A stretch of 64,000 nucleotides of DNA from Bacillus sp. ISL-45 (GTDB lineage: Bacteria; Bacillota; Bacilli; Bacillales; Cytobacillaceae), in NCBI RefSeq assembly GCF_018613195.1, contig NZ_JAGGQQ010000011.1, forward strand, positions 248,001-312,000, in the 5' to 3' direction. A model generated the notes under the pieces. That model searched no databases and was not told the origin of the DNA. It saw only the letters and a program-made list of their open reading frames with translations. A program made the translations under genes and the position numbers. Positions 25,414 to 47,000 of the stretch are shown piece by piece. Within the stretch, counting starts at the first letter, position 1. Every line of letters begins with the position of its first letter.

Positions 25414-25502
25414 GAAATATGATGATTTTTTCACATTGCAACGATAATTTAGACTACTATGAAACTAAGGGGAATATTAAATAGAATGCCGGAGGGGAAG
25501 CT

Positions 25503-27563
25503 ATGTCATCGATTAGCCAGGTAAAGACGGTCTGTGGTTATTGTGGAACAGGCTGCGGTTTAATATTGGATGTAGAAGATAATAGAATTGTGAAAATCAG
25601 AGGAGATAAGGACGCACCTGTAAATAAAGGACAAACATGTATAAAAGGTGCTTTTGCCTATCAATATGTCCATGCTCCGAAAAGATTGAATACACCTATG
25701 ATCAGGAAAGCAGGAGAGCTGGTAAAGGCTACCTGGGAGGAAGCGTATAATTACATAGCAGGCCGATTGACTGGAATCAAGACGGATTTTGGTCCAGAAT
25801 CCATATCGATGTTTGCCTGCGCACGGACTACCAATGAGTCGAACTACGTTACCCAGAAGTTCATGAGGACTGCTATCGGAAGCAATAATATTGATGGCTG
25901 TAACAGAACCTGACATGCTCCTAGTGTCGCCGGTCTGGCGACTGTTTTTGGAAGCGGTTTCCCAACAAATACATTGGAAGATATCGGTGAGGCAGAAGTG
26001 CTTTTACTTATGGGTTCCAACACGACGGAAGCACATCCAATCATAGGAAACAGAATAAAAAAAGCTGCCAAGGGCGGTCTCAAAATAATTGTCATTGACC
26101 CAAGAAAAATCGACATGGTCAAGTTCGCTCATAAACATCTGCAAATTAACGTCGGTACAGATATTGCGCTGATCAACGCGATAATTCGAATCATTATCAA
26201 AGAAAAGCTGTATGACCAAGGATTCATTGGCAGGCATACTGAGGATTTTGATGTATTGCTGTCAAAGGTCGAACGCTATACATCAGAATATTCTGCAGAA
26301 ATCACCGGTTTGGCGCCAGAAGATATCATTGAGGTTGCTCACCTGTATGCAAAGGCCAGCAGGGGGATGATTGCATACACACTCGGTATTACTGAACATC
26401 ACTGTGGAGTGAACAATGTATTCGATATCGCTAACCTTGCTCTGCTGACTGGCCAGATTGGCAAAAAAGGTTCAGGCATCATGCCTTTAAGAGGACAGAA
26501 TAATGTCCAGGGAGCCGGGGACATGGGATGCCTGCCGAACCAGCTTACAGGTGCTGTCAGCATATTGGACGGCGAATACCGTGCACGTTTCGAGAAATTA
26601 TGGAATATTGAAATCAGCAAAAGAGTTGGTGACACCCAGACGAGGACCTTCGATAAAATTGATACAGGTGAAATCAAAGCATTATATTGTATAGGGGAAA
26701 ATCCGCTAGTCGCAGACGTTCATATGAACCATACCAGAAGCCTATTGGAAAAACTCGATTTACTCATCGTCCAGGATATTTTCATGACAGAAACGGCCGA
26801 AATGGCAGATGTAGTGCTGCCAGCCAAGTCATGGGGCGAAGTTAACGGGACTTACACCAATACAGACAGGAGAGTCCAGCGTGTACGCACTGCAGTCAAT
26901 GCCCAGCCTGGAGTGAAAGAAGACTGGGAGATATTGTGTGAACTATCGGCGAAAATGGGTTACCCGATGGGTTATCAATCAAGCGAAGAAATTTGGAATG
27001 AAGTAAGGGAACTTGCTTGGGAGATGTATGGGGGCATATCATATGAACGCCTTGAAAAAGAGTATGGCATCCACTACCCGTGTCCTGATGAGACTCATCC
27101 AGGTACGAAAATCCTTCACGAAAGGTTCCATGCTGAAAGTGAAAATGAAAAACGATCCAGTTTTGTACCAGTTGAATTCACACCACCCTTGGAACAGCCC
27201 GATGAACATTATCCTTTTACCCTGACAACCGGCAGACGGTATGAGTCATACAATACTCATACACAAACCCGACACTACGCAGCAGGGGTGAAAATTAGAC
27301 AGACAGAGGAAACCCTTGATATTCATCCAGAAGATGCACTTCGCCTTCATATCAATGATGGAGATCTCGTCAGGGTGAGTTCACGACGAGGCACACTTGA
27401 CGTAAAAGCAAAAATAACTGCTCAGGTTGTTCCTGGACTCGTGTTCATGAGTTTCCACTGGTCCGAGGTTCCGACCAATGTACTTACACTGAATGAATAT
27501 GACCCAATTTCCGGTACCGCCGAATTCAAGGCTTGTGCCGTGAAAATTGAAACAATCGCATAG
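25503..27563 (+). CDS. fdhF: Formate dehydrogenase H-type alpha subunit, predicted selenoprotein (UGA = Sec137)
   Basis: Reading through one in-frame TGA at 25911-25913 gives a 686-residue molybdopterin formate dehydrogenase that is collinear with E. coli FdhF. Residues 11-46 hold the [4Fe-4S] cysteines (CGYCGTGC and Cys46). The UGA lies in NNIDGCNRT-U-HAPSVAGL, where E. coli has Sec140 followed by His141; the neighbouring Cys-type enzyme has Cys there. Downstream are [41 protein letters not shown] and a C-terminal molybdopterin-dinucleotide domain, with no decay after the TGA. A SECIS-like hairpin follows the TGA. ATG after GCCGGAGGGGAAGCT. It stands alone, with no electron-transfer subunit beside it. 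Confidence 0.92.
25911..25950 (+). promoter_or_regulatory. SECIS element with the UGA selenocysteine codon
   Basis: Directly after the TGA a hairpin GTCGCC-GGTCT-GGCGAC (25926-25942) forms. Its loop GGUCU occupies positions 22-26 counted from the U of UGA, the same distance and the same loop sequence as I recall for the E. coli fdhF SECIS that binds SelB. Position 17 is U as in E. coli, although here it can pair rather than bulge. This supports recoding of UGA as selenocysteine rather than a nonsense mutation. Confidence 0.85.
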
Positions 27564-27570
27564 GAAGTAT

Positions 27571-27607
27571 AAAAGCTAAAATCCCGCTCAGGGATTTTAG
27601 CTTTTTT
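27571..27607 (+). terminator. Intrinsic terminator of fdhF
   Basis: 15-bp stem AAAAGCTAAAATCCC/GGGATTTTAGCTTTT with a 5-nt loop and T run. Confidence 0.9.
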
Positions 27608-39867: not shown

Positions 39868-39914
39868 GAATTCTATCGTCAGATAAAAAAAGATATAACG
39901 AAGAGCTTCGCCTG

Positions 39915-39995
39915 CACTTCCCCACGCTGGTATTATCCAGATCGGGTAATAAGGGTCAGAACAAAGTTCTTCTCAGCCAAAAGCTCCCCTAGTGC
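39915..39995 (-). ncRNA. TPP (thiamine pyrophosphate) riboswitch aptamer
   Basis: On the reverse strand the aptamer runs from GCACTAGGGGAGC to GTGGGGAAGTGC with P1 arms GCACT/AGTGC, the THI-box core GGCTGAGAAG, GACCC, and ACCCGATCTGGATAATACC followed by AGCG. These are the conserved TPP-binding elements. It controls ykoFEDC. Confidence 0.95.
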
Positions 39996-40077
39996 AAAAA
40001 CCTATACAGTTGTTGTTTTCAAAATCATCTTAATGTAAATAGGCTGAATTGTAAATGGCTAATTTTCAAAATTTGAT

Positions 40078-42545: not shown

Positions 42546-45503
42546 TTGTCTGGCAAAATAAATGTAACAATCAACGGTGCTGACGTTGCGGCTAAAGAAA
42601 ATCAAACAATCCTTCAATACCTTTCAGATAGCTCGATAGAAGTGCCAAGTGTATGCTATCATCCAAGCCTTGGCCCAATTGAGACATGTGATACTTGTAT
42701 TGTAGAAGTGAACGGAGAAATGGCCAGGTCTTGTTCGACAATCATGAAGGATGGGGATACCATCGACACAGTGGCACCAGATGTTAAGAAGGCACAAACA
42801 ATGGCGATGGACAAGATTTTGTTTAATCATGAACTGTATTGTACTGTCTGTGACTACAATAATGGGATGTGTGAGGTACATAACACAGTAAAAGAAATGA
42901 AAATCAATCACCAGAGCATCCCATTTGATCAAAAGCCATATGAAAAAGATGAATCAAACCCTTTTTACCGATATGATCCTGATCAATGTATTTTATGCGG
43001 GAGATGCGTGGAAGCCTGTCAGGATGTACAGGTAACCGAGACGCTGAGAATCGATTGGGAACGTGAACGTCCACGTGTCATCTGGGATAATGATGTACCA
43101 ATCAATGAATCCTCATGTGTTTCTTGTGGTCACTGTTCAACCGTATGTCCATGTAATGCAATGATGGAAAAAGGAATGGAAGGCGAAGCCGGCTTTTTGA
43201 CAGGAATCGCAAAAGATACTTTGCGGCCAATGATTGAAATTACCAAGAATGTCGAGACTGGTTACGGGTCCATCCTGGCGATTTCCGATATGGAAGCCGC
43301 CATGCGTGAATCTAGAATCAAGAAAACCAAGACTGTTTGCACTTACTGCGGAGTGGGCTGCAGTTTTGATGTGTGGACGAAGGGGCGAGAAATCCTGAAG
43401 GTCGAGCCGCAGGTTGAAGCTCCAGCCAATGGAATTTCTACATGTATAAAAGGTAAATTCGGATGGGATTTCGTTAACAGCGAAGAGCGCCTGACCAAGC
43501 CGCTGATACGTGAAGGAGACAGCTTTAGAGAAGCAGAATGGGATGAGGCATTGAATCTCATCTCCAATAAATTTACAGAAATCAAGAATGAGTATGGCCC
43601 TGATTCTCTTGGCTTCATAACATCGTCTAAATGTACGAATGAAGAATCATATCTAATGCAAAAACTGGCAAGGTCTGTAATTGGAACAAATAATGTCGAC
43701 AATTGCTCCCGATATTGCCAAACGCCTGCTACTGTTGGTTTGTTCAGAACAGTTGGACATGGTGGCGATGCTGGATCAATCACTGATATTGCAATGGCTG
43801 ATTTGGTCATCATCGTCGGGTCCAATACAGCAGAAGCACATCCTGTCCTTGCAACCAGGGTGAAACGCGCCCAAAAGCTGACTGGGCAAAAAGTGATTGT
43901 CGCCGACCTTCGTGAGCATGAAATGGCTGACCGTGCTGATATGTTCGTAAGGCCAAAGGCAGGCAGTGACCTTGTCTGGATTTCCGCTGTCACTAAATAC
44001 ATTATCGACCAGGGCTGGGCTGATGAAGAATTCCTGAACAATAAAGTCAATGGACTTTCGGAATACGTTGACAGTCTTGAAGGATTCACTTTGGAATATG
44101 CAGAAAAAACAACTGGCCTTTCAAAAGATACGCTGATTGAGATTGCTGAGAGCATCCATAAAGCAAAAAGCGTTTGTGCACTATGGGCAATGGGAGTTAC
44201 ACAGCATATTGGCGGGAGTGACACCAGTACGGCGATTTCGAACCTATTGTTGATTACTGGAAATTACGGCCGTCCAGGAACGGGTGCATATCCACTGCGA
44301 GGACATAATAATGTCCAGGGAGCAGGCGATTTTGGCAGCAGCCCGGACTCACTGCCAGGGTACCAAAAGGTAACCGATGAAGAGGCGCGAATGAAGTTTG
44401 AACAAGCATGGGGAACCAGGCTGCCTGCTGAACCAGGGATCAATAACCATGACATGGTTGAAGGGATGCATAAAGAAACGCTTAAAGCCCTTTACATCAA
44501 GGGTGAAGAGATGGGCCTTGTGGATTCCAATATCAATCACGTCCAGGCCGGCTATGAGAAGCTCGACTTCTTTGTAGTCCAGGATGTATTCTTCTCCAGG
44601 ACCGCACAATTTGCAGACGTTGTTCTGCCAGCAAGCCCAAGCTTTGAAAAAGAGGGCACATTTACGAATACCGAGCGAAGGATTCAGCGTTTGTATCAGG
44701 TATTCGAGCCAGTTGGTGAATCTAAGCCTGATTGGCAGATTCTGATTGAAGTCGCCAACCGCCTTGGTGCAGGCTGGACATATGAGCATCCTTCTGAAAT
44801 CATGGCTGAAGCGGCAAGCCTAATGCCGATTTACTCTGGCGTGACGTATGAACGCCTTGAAGGGTACAAGAGCCTTCAATGGCCAGTACAACCGGATGGA
44901 ACTGACAGTCCTGTATTGTATTTGGATGGCTTCCCATTCCCGGATGGGAAAGCACGTCTCTATCCAGTAAAATGGTCTATTCCGATTCAGTATGGAGAGG
45001 AATATGACATTCATGTCAATAATGGCCGTCTTCTTGAGCATTTCCATGAAGGTAACCTGACTTATAAGTCAGAGGGAATCACCTCGAAGACTCCTGAAAC
45101 ATTCCTTGAAGTCTCACCAGAGCTTGCAGAAGAAAGGGGCTTGAAGGATGGAACACTAGTGAGGCTGACGTCGCCGTATGGCAACGTTAAGGTCAGATGT
45201 GTTGTAACCGACAGAGTGCAAGGAAAGGAAGTCTATCTGCCTATGAACGACCAGGGTGATGCAGCCATCAATCTCCTGACAAGCAGCTATGGAGATAAAA
45301 ACACGGATACTCCAGCGTATAAGGAGACGAAGGCCAAAATGGAAATCCTCCAACTTGAAGGAGTCAATCCTTTGCCAAGGAATAATTTCCGATACGGTAA
45401 TCCACAGCCGCAAATCGGCGTCCAAGTCGAAAAGAAGTGGGCTCGTCCAGATTACAGCTTTCCAGGAGATCTTGTGAAAAAGGAGCGTACCCAGCATGGC
45501 TAA
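42546..45503 (+). CDS. yrhE: Formate dehydrogenase alpha subunit, cysteine type (YrhE-like)
   Basis: A 985-residue soluble formate dehydrogenase. Order: N-terminal [2Fe-2S] ferredoxin domain ([15 protein letters not shown]), His-Cys cluster region ([15 protein letters not shown]), two [4Fe-4S] ferredoxin motifs ([25 protein letters not shown]), then the molybdopterin domain with its own cluster ([13 protein letters not shown]). The catalytic position is Cys391 in [18 protein letters not shown], where the paralogue at 25503 has UGA. It starts at TTG after AAAGGAAGATGAGG. The architecture is that of B. subtilis YrhE and NAD-linked enzymes of this type. It overlaps the next gene by eight bases. 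Confidence 0.92.
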
Positions 45504-46060: not shown

Positions 46061-46101
46061 GGCAGGCATCAAGCATTCCCGCTTGTTCGCCTGCTTTTTT
46101 A
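46061..46101 (+). terminator. Intrinsic terminator between yrhD and fdhD
   Basis: GCAGGC ... GCCTGC outer stem with inner CAAGC/GCTTG and T6. Confidence 0.8.
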
Positions 46102-46175
46102 AGTTTCACTATCCAGCTTTATGGATAAAAGGAGATTACCGGAAAGTAAAACTCGAATCAGAGAGGATGGCTGTT

Positions 46176-47000
46176 GTGAAACCAGTCGAAGTCAAAAGGG
46201 AAATTCTTCGTTTTGGAGATGGCCAGGCCGAAAGCTTGGAAGACAGCATCGTAACGGAATATTCCGTCACCATTAAAGTGAATGGTCAGGAATTGGTTAC
46301 GATGGTTTGTACTCCAGATTATATTGAAGAAATGGTCATTGGATACCTCGCGTCCGAAGGAATCATCAGGAAGTATTCAGATATTGAAGATATATGGATT
46401 CAGGAAAAAGAAGGGTTTGTCCATGTGAAAACTTCAAGAGTAAATCCCATTTACAAAAACTTGCAGGGTAAGCGTTACTTAACATCCTGCTGCGGGGCCA
46501 GCAGGGCAGGGTTTGTATTTGCGACAGATGCTATGACTGCAAAAAAACTCCATAAGGTCAAGACAGAAATCGAAGTGGAGGATTGCTTTAGGCTCATGGA
46601 AGAAATGCAGGATTCCGCTCACCTTTTCCAAAATACAGGGGGAGTCCATAACGCCTCTCTTTGCAGTTTGTTTGGTCCAGTTGTGTCGCGGATGGATATC
46701 GGCCGCCATAATGCCCTGGATAAAATTTTTGGGCATTGCTTAAAAAATGAAATTTCAATACACGATAAAGTAATTGTTTTCAGTGGACGGATTTCCTCAG
46801 AAATTTTATTGAAGGTAGCCAAAATCGGCTGCCCGATTGTATTATCCAAATCAGCTCCCACTGAACTTGCCTTGAAGCTAGCGGAGGAACTGGGGATTAC
46901 GACAATTGGCTTTATCAGGAATCGATCACTTAATGTCTACACACACCCGGAACGGGTTGCTGAGGCAAAATACGGAGCCAAGGAAAGCCAGGTTGAATAA
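46176..47000 (+). CDS. fdhD: Formate dehydrogenase accessory sulfurtransferase FdhD
   Basis: A roughly 274-residue FdhD, which carries sulfur from a cysteine desulfurase to the molybdenum cofactor, needed for active formate dehydrogenase. Seen: EEMVIGYLASEGII, the cysteine loop TSCCGASRAG, FQNTGGVHNASLC, DIGRHNALDKIFG and the C-terminal GCPIVLSKSAPTELAL. The frame opens far upstream; of the ATG at 46167 and the GTG at 46176, only the GTG has a properly spaced GAGAGG (nine bases). It can serve both formate dehydrogenases here. Confidence 0.92.
   Translation: MKPVEVKREILRFGDGQAESLEDSIVTEYSVTIKVNGQELVTMVCTPDYIEEMVIGYLASEGIIRKYSDIEDIWIQEKEGFVHVKTSRVNPIYKNLQGKRYLTSCCGASRAGFVFATDAMTAKKLHKVKTEIEVEDCFRLMEEMQDSAHLFQNTGGVHNASLCSLFGPVVSRMDIGRHNALDKIFGHCLKNEISIHDKVIVFSGRISSEILLKVAKIGCPIVLSKSAPTELALKLAEELGITTIGFIRNRSLNVYTHPERVAEAKYGAKESQVE

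What the first reader, a model, noticed from the sequence alone, without database searches (positions are those of the whole stretch)
25503..27563. Predicted selenocysteine formate dehydrogenase in a Bacillaceae genome
The fdhF frame contains one TGA at 25911, exactly where E. coli FdhF has selenocysteine (context NRT-U-HAPSVAGL) and where the paralogue at 42546 has cysteine. The frame is intact for 550 codons after it. The hairpin behind it carries the loop GGUCU at positions 22-26 from the UGA, as I recall for the E. coli fdhF SECIS. Automatic annotation would call this two fragments or a pseudogene. Selenoproteins are uncommon among aerobic spore-forming Bacillaceae.
Basis: partly seen in the sequence, partly recalled or inferred. 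Interest (0 to 1): 0.95.

Follow-up and report, generated by a model that had tools for sequence, protein, structure and literature searches.

The report
Selenocysteine formate dehydrogenase in Mesobacillus
The gene is very probably a genuine selenium-containing formate dehydrogenase that reads an in-frame stop codon as selenocysteine, but it is a standard example of a known kind and is common, not rare, in this group of spore-forming bacteria.

Summary
Window 25503-27563 (+) is a 686-residue FdhF frame with one in-frame TGA at 25911-25913, aligned with the selenocysteine codon of E. coli fdhF and with a cysteine in the paralogue at 42546. A hairpin with loop GGUCU follows at positions 22-26 from the UGA, as in E. 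coli. It also holds three further TGA genes: a second FdhF, SelD, and a SelW-like CxxU protein between selA and selD.

All 110 fetched FdhF loci carry TGA in that column. In 84 distinct genes, of 473 degenerate codon positions only the three over the hairpin loop use a single codon. One stem pair covaries (U-A 53, C-G 27, U-G 4, C-A 0).

The rarity claim fails for this family: selB is over cut-off in 170 of 193 genomes, and TGA-FdhF is listed for 130 of 193. Across a class sample it is a minority trait (85 of 398). Bacillales selenoproteins were tabulated in 2006. This is a new member of a known kind, with ordinary UGA recoding. Selenium incorporation and formate activity are inferred, not shown.

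The parts
25503..27563 (+). fdhF: formate dehydrogenase alpha subunit, 686 residues with selenocysteine at 137
   Evidence: TIGR01591 Fdh-alpha 774.6 bits against cut-off 666.25; Pfam Molybdop_Fe4S4, Molybdopterin, Molydop_binding; translation
25911..25913 (+). in-frame TGA, inferred to be read as selenocysteine
   Evidence: TGA in that column in 110 of 110 fetched loci; aligned with the E. coli fdhF TGA
25926..25942 (+). SECIS-like hairpin, stem 16-21/27-32 counted from the UGA
   Evidence: folds; pair 18-30 covaries; pair 19-29 is A-U in the own-genome paralogue
25932..25936 (+). hairpin loop GGUCU
   Evidence: invariant in 84 of 84 distinct genes; the codons over it (143-145) are the only single-codon positions among 473
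25491..25497 (+). GGAGGGG, probable ribosome-binding site of fdhF
   Evidence: read from the sequence
27571..27605 (+). inverted repeat with T run after fdhF, probable terminator
   Evidence: read by eye; not listed by the scan
42546..45503 (+). cysteine-type paralogue (YjgC-like, with N-terminal 2Fe-2S and 4Fe-4S domains), comparison only
   Evidence: Pfam; 842.3 bits to TIGR01591; 34% identity, Cys in the Sec column

Best explanation
This is a bacterial molybdenum (or tungsten) formate dehydrogenase whose active-site residue 137 is selenocysteine. SelD makes selenophosphate and SelA converts seryl-tRNA-Sec to selenocysteyl-tRNA-Sec. SelB carries that tRNA to the ribosome and binds the GGUCU hairpin whose stem starts 12 nt after the UGA, so that the UGA is decoded as selenocysteine instead of ending the chain. 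Shown here by sequence: the frame, the codon, the hairpin and its conservation, and all four sel genes. Inferred from homology and established knowledge of the pathway: selenium incorporation, SelB binding, formate oxidation, metal content. The electron partner is unknown.
For: Machinery: tRNA-Sec 58.3 bits, cut-off 47, ARAGORN tRNA-SeC(tca); selB 365.6, cut-off 242.25, with SelB winged-helix domains; selA 560.4, cut-off 267.9; selD 394.9, cut-off 125. Codon: TGA in 110 of 110 fetched loci at 66-100% identity (the loci are best matches, so Sec types are favoured). RNA: in 84 distinct genes, of 473 degenerate codon positions only 143-145 (GCC GGT CTG) show no synonymous variation (3 of 479 with two genes counted twice); codons 142-147 are the most conserved 6-codon window of 481. 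Pair 18-30: U-A 53, C-G 27, U-G 4, C-A 0; parsimony gives 9 changes of the pair, 5 on both sides at once. The 52%-identical paralogue of the same genome keeps the stem with A-U for G-C at 19-29. Protein: differences from the window at codon positions 1, 2, 3 are 0.20, 0.11, 0.54 before the UGA and 0.19, 0.12, 0.55 after it, so selection on the protein does not relax behind the UGA. Co-occurrence: TGA-FdhF with selB 128, TGA-FdhF without selB 2, selB without a listed TGA-FdhF 42, neither 21; Fisher p 6.5e-10, not corrected for relatedness. All 7 listed SelD rows without TGA are from genomes without selB. Solved relatives: HDCR FdhF 7qv7 and E. coli FDH-H 1aa6.
Against: No experiment shows selenium in the protein. 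The hairpin is not unusually stable by itself, and it lacks the bulged U that I recall for E. coli. The tRNA-Sec model is passed in 5 of 14 control genomes while selB is passed in 2 of 14, so that tRNA match alone is not decisive. Two genomes with TGA-FdhF lack a selB match (G006, 88% complete, 530 contigs; G145, 94%, 720 contigs), perhaps gaps in the drafts. One FdhF frame (G162) also has a TAG.
Confidence: 0.97

Rival explanations
1. Pseudogene or sequencing error: the TGA is a recent nonsense mutation or a miscall of TGT/TGC.
For: Formally possible for any single in-frame stop; no call supports it.
Against: The same TGA stands in 110 of 110 fetched loci, and codon-position differences are the same before and after it; selA, selB, selD and tRNA-Sec are present.
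Confidence: 0.01
2. The UGA is read as another residue (tryptophan or cysteine) by near-cognate suppression or a changed code, and the hairpin serves another purpose.
For: The paralogue at 42546 carries Cys in the column.
Against: A tRNA-Sec with anticodon UCA and SelB exist. TGA-FdhF goes with selB. In the seven listed selB-lacking genomes whose SelD has no TGA, SelD has TGC or TGT at the site.
Confidence: 0.01
3. The hairpin plus the following T run is a transcription attenuator, and the short 136-residue product is the normal one.
For: The scan lists 25926-25942 with a TGTTTTT tail as terminator-like. A run of five T follows the stem in 47 of 84 distinct genes.
Against: The T run is broken in the other 37 of 84 while the loop is the same in 84 of 84. 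The region has 4 terminator-like sites against 2.2 (sd 1.4) in shuffles. Protein-level constraint is unchanged downstream.
Confidence: 0.01

Closest known systems
E. coli formate dehydrogenase H (fdhF, selenocysteine 140; residue number recalled)
   Same: In-frame UGA in the homologous context, hairpin loop GGUCU at positions 22-26; whole-length match to 1aa6, E 5.7e-157
   Different: Here a straight 6-bp stem with a 5-nt loop; the E. coli stretch folds with an interrupted stem. The two flanking genes here are a PAS sensor kinase and a LysM/3D protein, not formate-hydrogenlyase genes
FdhF of hydrogen-dependent CO2 reductase (PDB 7qv7)
   Same: Best solved relative, E 2.8e-202
   Different: The PDB sequence has C in the Sec column (RLCHAP; whether that is the native residue was not checked). 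Hydrogenase partner subunits were not looked for in this genome
YjgC-type formate dehydrogenase (paralogue at 42546; PDB 8rqz)
   Same: Shared catalytic part, 34% identity
   Different: Cys instead of Sec; extra N-terminal iron-sulphur domains; followed by a DUF1641 protein and FdhD

Membership tests
Selenocysteine formate dehydrogenase (FdhA/FdhF selenoprotein family) | Formate dehydrogenase alpha-subunit profile over its curated cut-off | tested here: met
   TIGR01591 774.6 bits, cut-off 666.25
Selenocysteine formate dehydrogenase (FdhA/FdhF selenoprotein family) | In-frame UGA at the catalytic Sec/Cys column, frame open behind it | tested here: met
Selenocysteine formate dehydrogenase (FdhA/FdhF selenoprotein family) | Bacterial SECIS hairpin just after the UGA, apical loop 16-37 nt from it | tested here: met
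   18 nt lie between the UGA and the loop; conserved and covarying. The 16-37 nt range is from a passage of PMC10778597. bSECISearch could not be run.
Selenocysteine formate dehydrogenase (FdhA/FdhF selenoprotein family) | Sec decoding genes selA, selB, selC (tRNA-Sec), selD in the genome | tested here: met
Selenocysteine formate dehydrogenase (FdhA/FdhF selenoprotein family) | Selenium in the protein and formate oxidation | not testable with these tools
   needs 75Se labelling, mass spectrometry and enzyme assay

The most novel reading that the evidence does not exclude
In this Bacillaceae lineage the selenocysteine trait is a near-fixed core trait, and in part of the family it outlives loss of Sec-FdhF, being held by Sec-SelD and the SelW-like CxxU protein; where selB goes, SelD reverts to cysteine.
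Probability: 0.4. Interest if true: 0.4.

Novelty: new member of a known kind. Interest (0 to 1): 0.27.

Why it matters
It adds well-supported selenoproteins to a group usually pictured through Bacillus subtilis, which lacks SelB and tRNA-Sec (PMC1780047, passage seen). Gene callers that stop at TGA would lose most of FdhF. The family also offers a natural experiment: genomes with and without selB, with SelD carrying Sec or Cys. No new mechanism is involved.

Tried and rejected
Rejected: pseudogene, sequencing error, other decoding, and attenuator readings (see rivals). The folding-energy test alone was not significant and is not used as proof. Rfam at gathering threshold gave no SECIS hit in the window, only a TPP riboswitch. 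A first translation of the SelW-like gene was in the wrong frame and was redone. A regex for the Cys paralogue found nothing; the alignment replaced it. A regex for SelW-like frames also printed off-frame noise; only rows with the NYAPKAA context were read. A search for a repeat of the tRNA-Sec region in contig C19 gave only a 13-base match starting upstream of the tRNA, no support for a prophage boundary there.

Limits of the counts. The 86 rows were picked by the motif NRT*H[AG]PSV with TGA, so their TGA is so by construction; they also hold two genes twice (window with L027, L039 with L040). One search recounted on 84 distinct genes and, separately, read the Sec column in all 110 loci L027-L136 by tblastn with the column masked. 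Those 110 are the best 30 and the best 80 (of 261), include the window's own gene, and hold some genomes twice. Searches cut their row lists: the 130 genomes with TGA-FdhF and the SelD statements come from listed rows, so the 42 genomes with selB but no listed TGA-FdhF may include some with weaker, unlisted rows. In one search every listed row of 50% identity or more has a TGA (G162 also a TAG) and the stop-free rows begin at 38%. In the own genus 20 of 21 genomes have TGA-FdhF; G079 (66% complete) does not. The 23 genomes without selB include G177, G189 and G192, not printed and inferred because all other handles were. Against the SelD pattern, G145 and G189 have TGA-SelD but no selB match (94% complete in 720 contigs; 66% complete).

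Papers. Seen as passages only: PMC1794560, PMC5029168, PMC1780047, PMC10778597, PMC9312934, PMC8659212, PMC7331816, PMC10100899. PMC13188914, PMC12013277 and PMC5330540 were searched in the main text for Bacillus-type terms and had none. Searches for this trait in these organisms; apart from the papers just named, their results were seen as listings only. Three of the eight hits were opened; their passages speak of the selenate reductase of B. selenatarsenatis, not of its selenoproteins. A passage in PMC8659212 mentions a SelB 'from Bacillus' tested in E. coli; not followed up. The library lacks most subscription journals.

Full report
Observation. The frame at 25503-27563 (+) translates to 686 residues with a single TGA at 25911-25913. 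The other five frames hold 18-47 stops over the same stretch. The product scores 774.6 bits to the formate dehydrogenase alpha profile TIGR01591, cut-off 666.25, with three Mo-enzyme domains in Pfam. The TGA falls in the column of the E. coli fdhF TGA and of a cysteine in the paralogue at 42546. The hairpin is at 25926-25942, loop GGUCU at nt 22-26 from the UGA; E. coli has GGUCU at the same distance. As a free fold it is not exceptional.

Machinery. The window lies in G000, contig C3. The genome has tRNA-Sec at C19:3261-3353 (58.3 bits, cut-off 47; ARAGORN anticodon tca), selB at C25:89133-90992 (365.6 bits) with GTPase, beta-barrel and two SelB winged-helix domains, selA at C25:202917-204299 (560.4) and selD at C25:204833-205759 (394.9). 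Each is over its curated cut-off. Controls: the tRNA-Sec, selB and selD searches ring weakly in 14 of 14 control genomes, selA in 4; over the cut-off they ring in 5 (tRNA-Sec), 2 (selB), 1 (selA) and 2 (selD) of 14. The tRNA model is thus the least specific of the four, and the case rests on all four together.

Other selenoprotein genes in the same genome. SelD has one in-frame TGA, context AG-U-GCK. Between selA and selD, on the minus strand at C25:204676-204434, lies an 80-residue protein with FCMQ-U, over the cut-off of TIGR02174 SelT/SelW/SelH (71.2 bits against 34.2) and under that of NF041051 (80.6 against 88). A second FdhF, 52% identical, with TGA in the same place is at C27:263720-265750, next to an fdhD gene. 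So at least four TGA genes of known selenoprotein families are present; a full scan of the genome was not made.

Hairpin under selection. All 110 fetched FdhF loci have TGA in the Sec column when that column is masked in the query. On 84 distinct genes, among 473 degenerate codon positions (at least 60 sequences sharing the window's residue) only three use a single codon: Ala143 GCC (83 of 83), Gly144 GGT (84 of 84), Leu145 CTG (84 of 84), the codons over the loop. Codons 142-147 form the lowest synonymous-entropy window of 481, computed on the 86-row set. Stem pair 18-30 is U-A in 53, C-G in 27, U-G in 4 and C-A in none. On a tree made without this region, parsimony gives 9 changes of that pair, 5 of them on both sides. 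The own-genome paralogue replaces the G-C pair 19-29 by A-U. Positions 18 and 30 are third codon positions of Val and Ala, so the protein does not demand this pairing. Differences at codon positions 1, 2 and 3 are 0.20, 0.11, 0.54 before the UGA and 0.19, 0.12, 0.55 after it, so the part behind the UGA is under the same protein-level constraint.

Distribution. The 80 loci kept (of 261) run from 66 to 97% identity and bear names such as Mesobacillus, Neobacillus, Cytobacillus, Robertmurraya and Schinkia. The closest are Bacillus sp. ISL-41 (97%) and Mesobacillus species (up to 92%), so I place the window in Mesobacillus, by inference; NCBI puts that genus in Bacillaceae. In the family sample of 193 genomes selB is over cut-off in 170, selD in 180, and the SelW-like protein matches in 160. 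Listed rows show TGA-FdhF in 130 genomes, 128 of them with selB; the two exceptions are fragmented drafts. The seven listed SelD rows without TGA all belong to genomes without selB, and all seven (L147-L153) have TGC or TGT at the site. Against this, G145 and G189 have TGA-SelD but no selB match; they are 94% complete in 720 contigs and 66% complete. Across the class sample selB is in 85 of 398, of which 4 are from the window's own family.

What is known. A 2006 survey (PMC1794560, passages seen) found FdhA in 67 of 75 Sec-using organisms, FdhA or SelD in every one of them, and lists Firmicutes/Bacillales with 3 families and 3 selenoproteins; it also proposed that SelD can maintain the trait where FdhA is missing. 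B. subtilis lacks SelB and tRNA-Sec (PMC1780047, passage). Searches with genus and family names showed no paper on this trait in Mesobacillus or Neobacillus among the listings and the passages opened, but most hits were seen as listings only and the library is partial.

Verdict. The rarity claim is wrong for this family. The mechanism is standard SelA/B/C/D recoding. Interest is moderate to low.

Noticed in passing
G000 contig C25:202917-205759 (locus L023): selA, a SelW-like CxxU protein gene with in-frame TGA, and a selD with in-frame TGA sit together; in the relatives read the SelW-like hairpin keeps its stem through a paired change (CCGCG..CGCGG, CUGCG..CGCAG).
   Followed up: partly
L001:1706-2920 (G000 contig C19, beside tRNA-Sec): A tyrosine integrase gene (Pfam Phage_integrase, 102 bits) lies directly downstream of the tRNA-Sec gene, as if tRNA-Sec were an integration site; no attachment-site repeat was found in this contig.
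   Followed up: partly
window 25926-25950: The SECIS-like hairpin followed by TGTTTTT scores as an intrinsic terminator; a run of five T is present in 47 of 84 distinct genes and broken in 37.
   Followed up: partly
window 39902-40000 (-): TPP riboswitch, 80.3 bits (Rfam RF00059).
   Followed up: no
window 46083-47000 and L137:7775-8617: Two FdhD genes in the genome, one after the Cys-type formate dehydrogenase, one beside the second Sec-type one; the two genes flanking the fdhF of this finding are not FdhD.
   Followed up: no
G032:C18:15946-16173: This SelW-like homologue has no TGA although the genome has selB and TGA-FdhF, a possible Sec-to-Cys change.
   Followed up: no
L061 and L118: Records titled Chryseobacterium sp. 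ISL-80 and Pseudomonas sp. ISL-84 carry this FdhF at 88 and 74% identity; the titles look like mislabelled Bacillaceae genomes.
   Followed up: no
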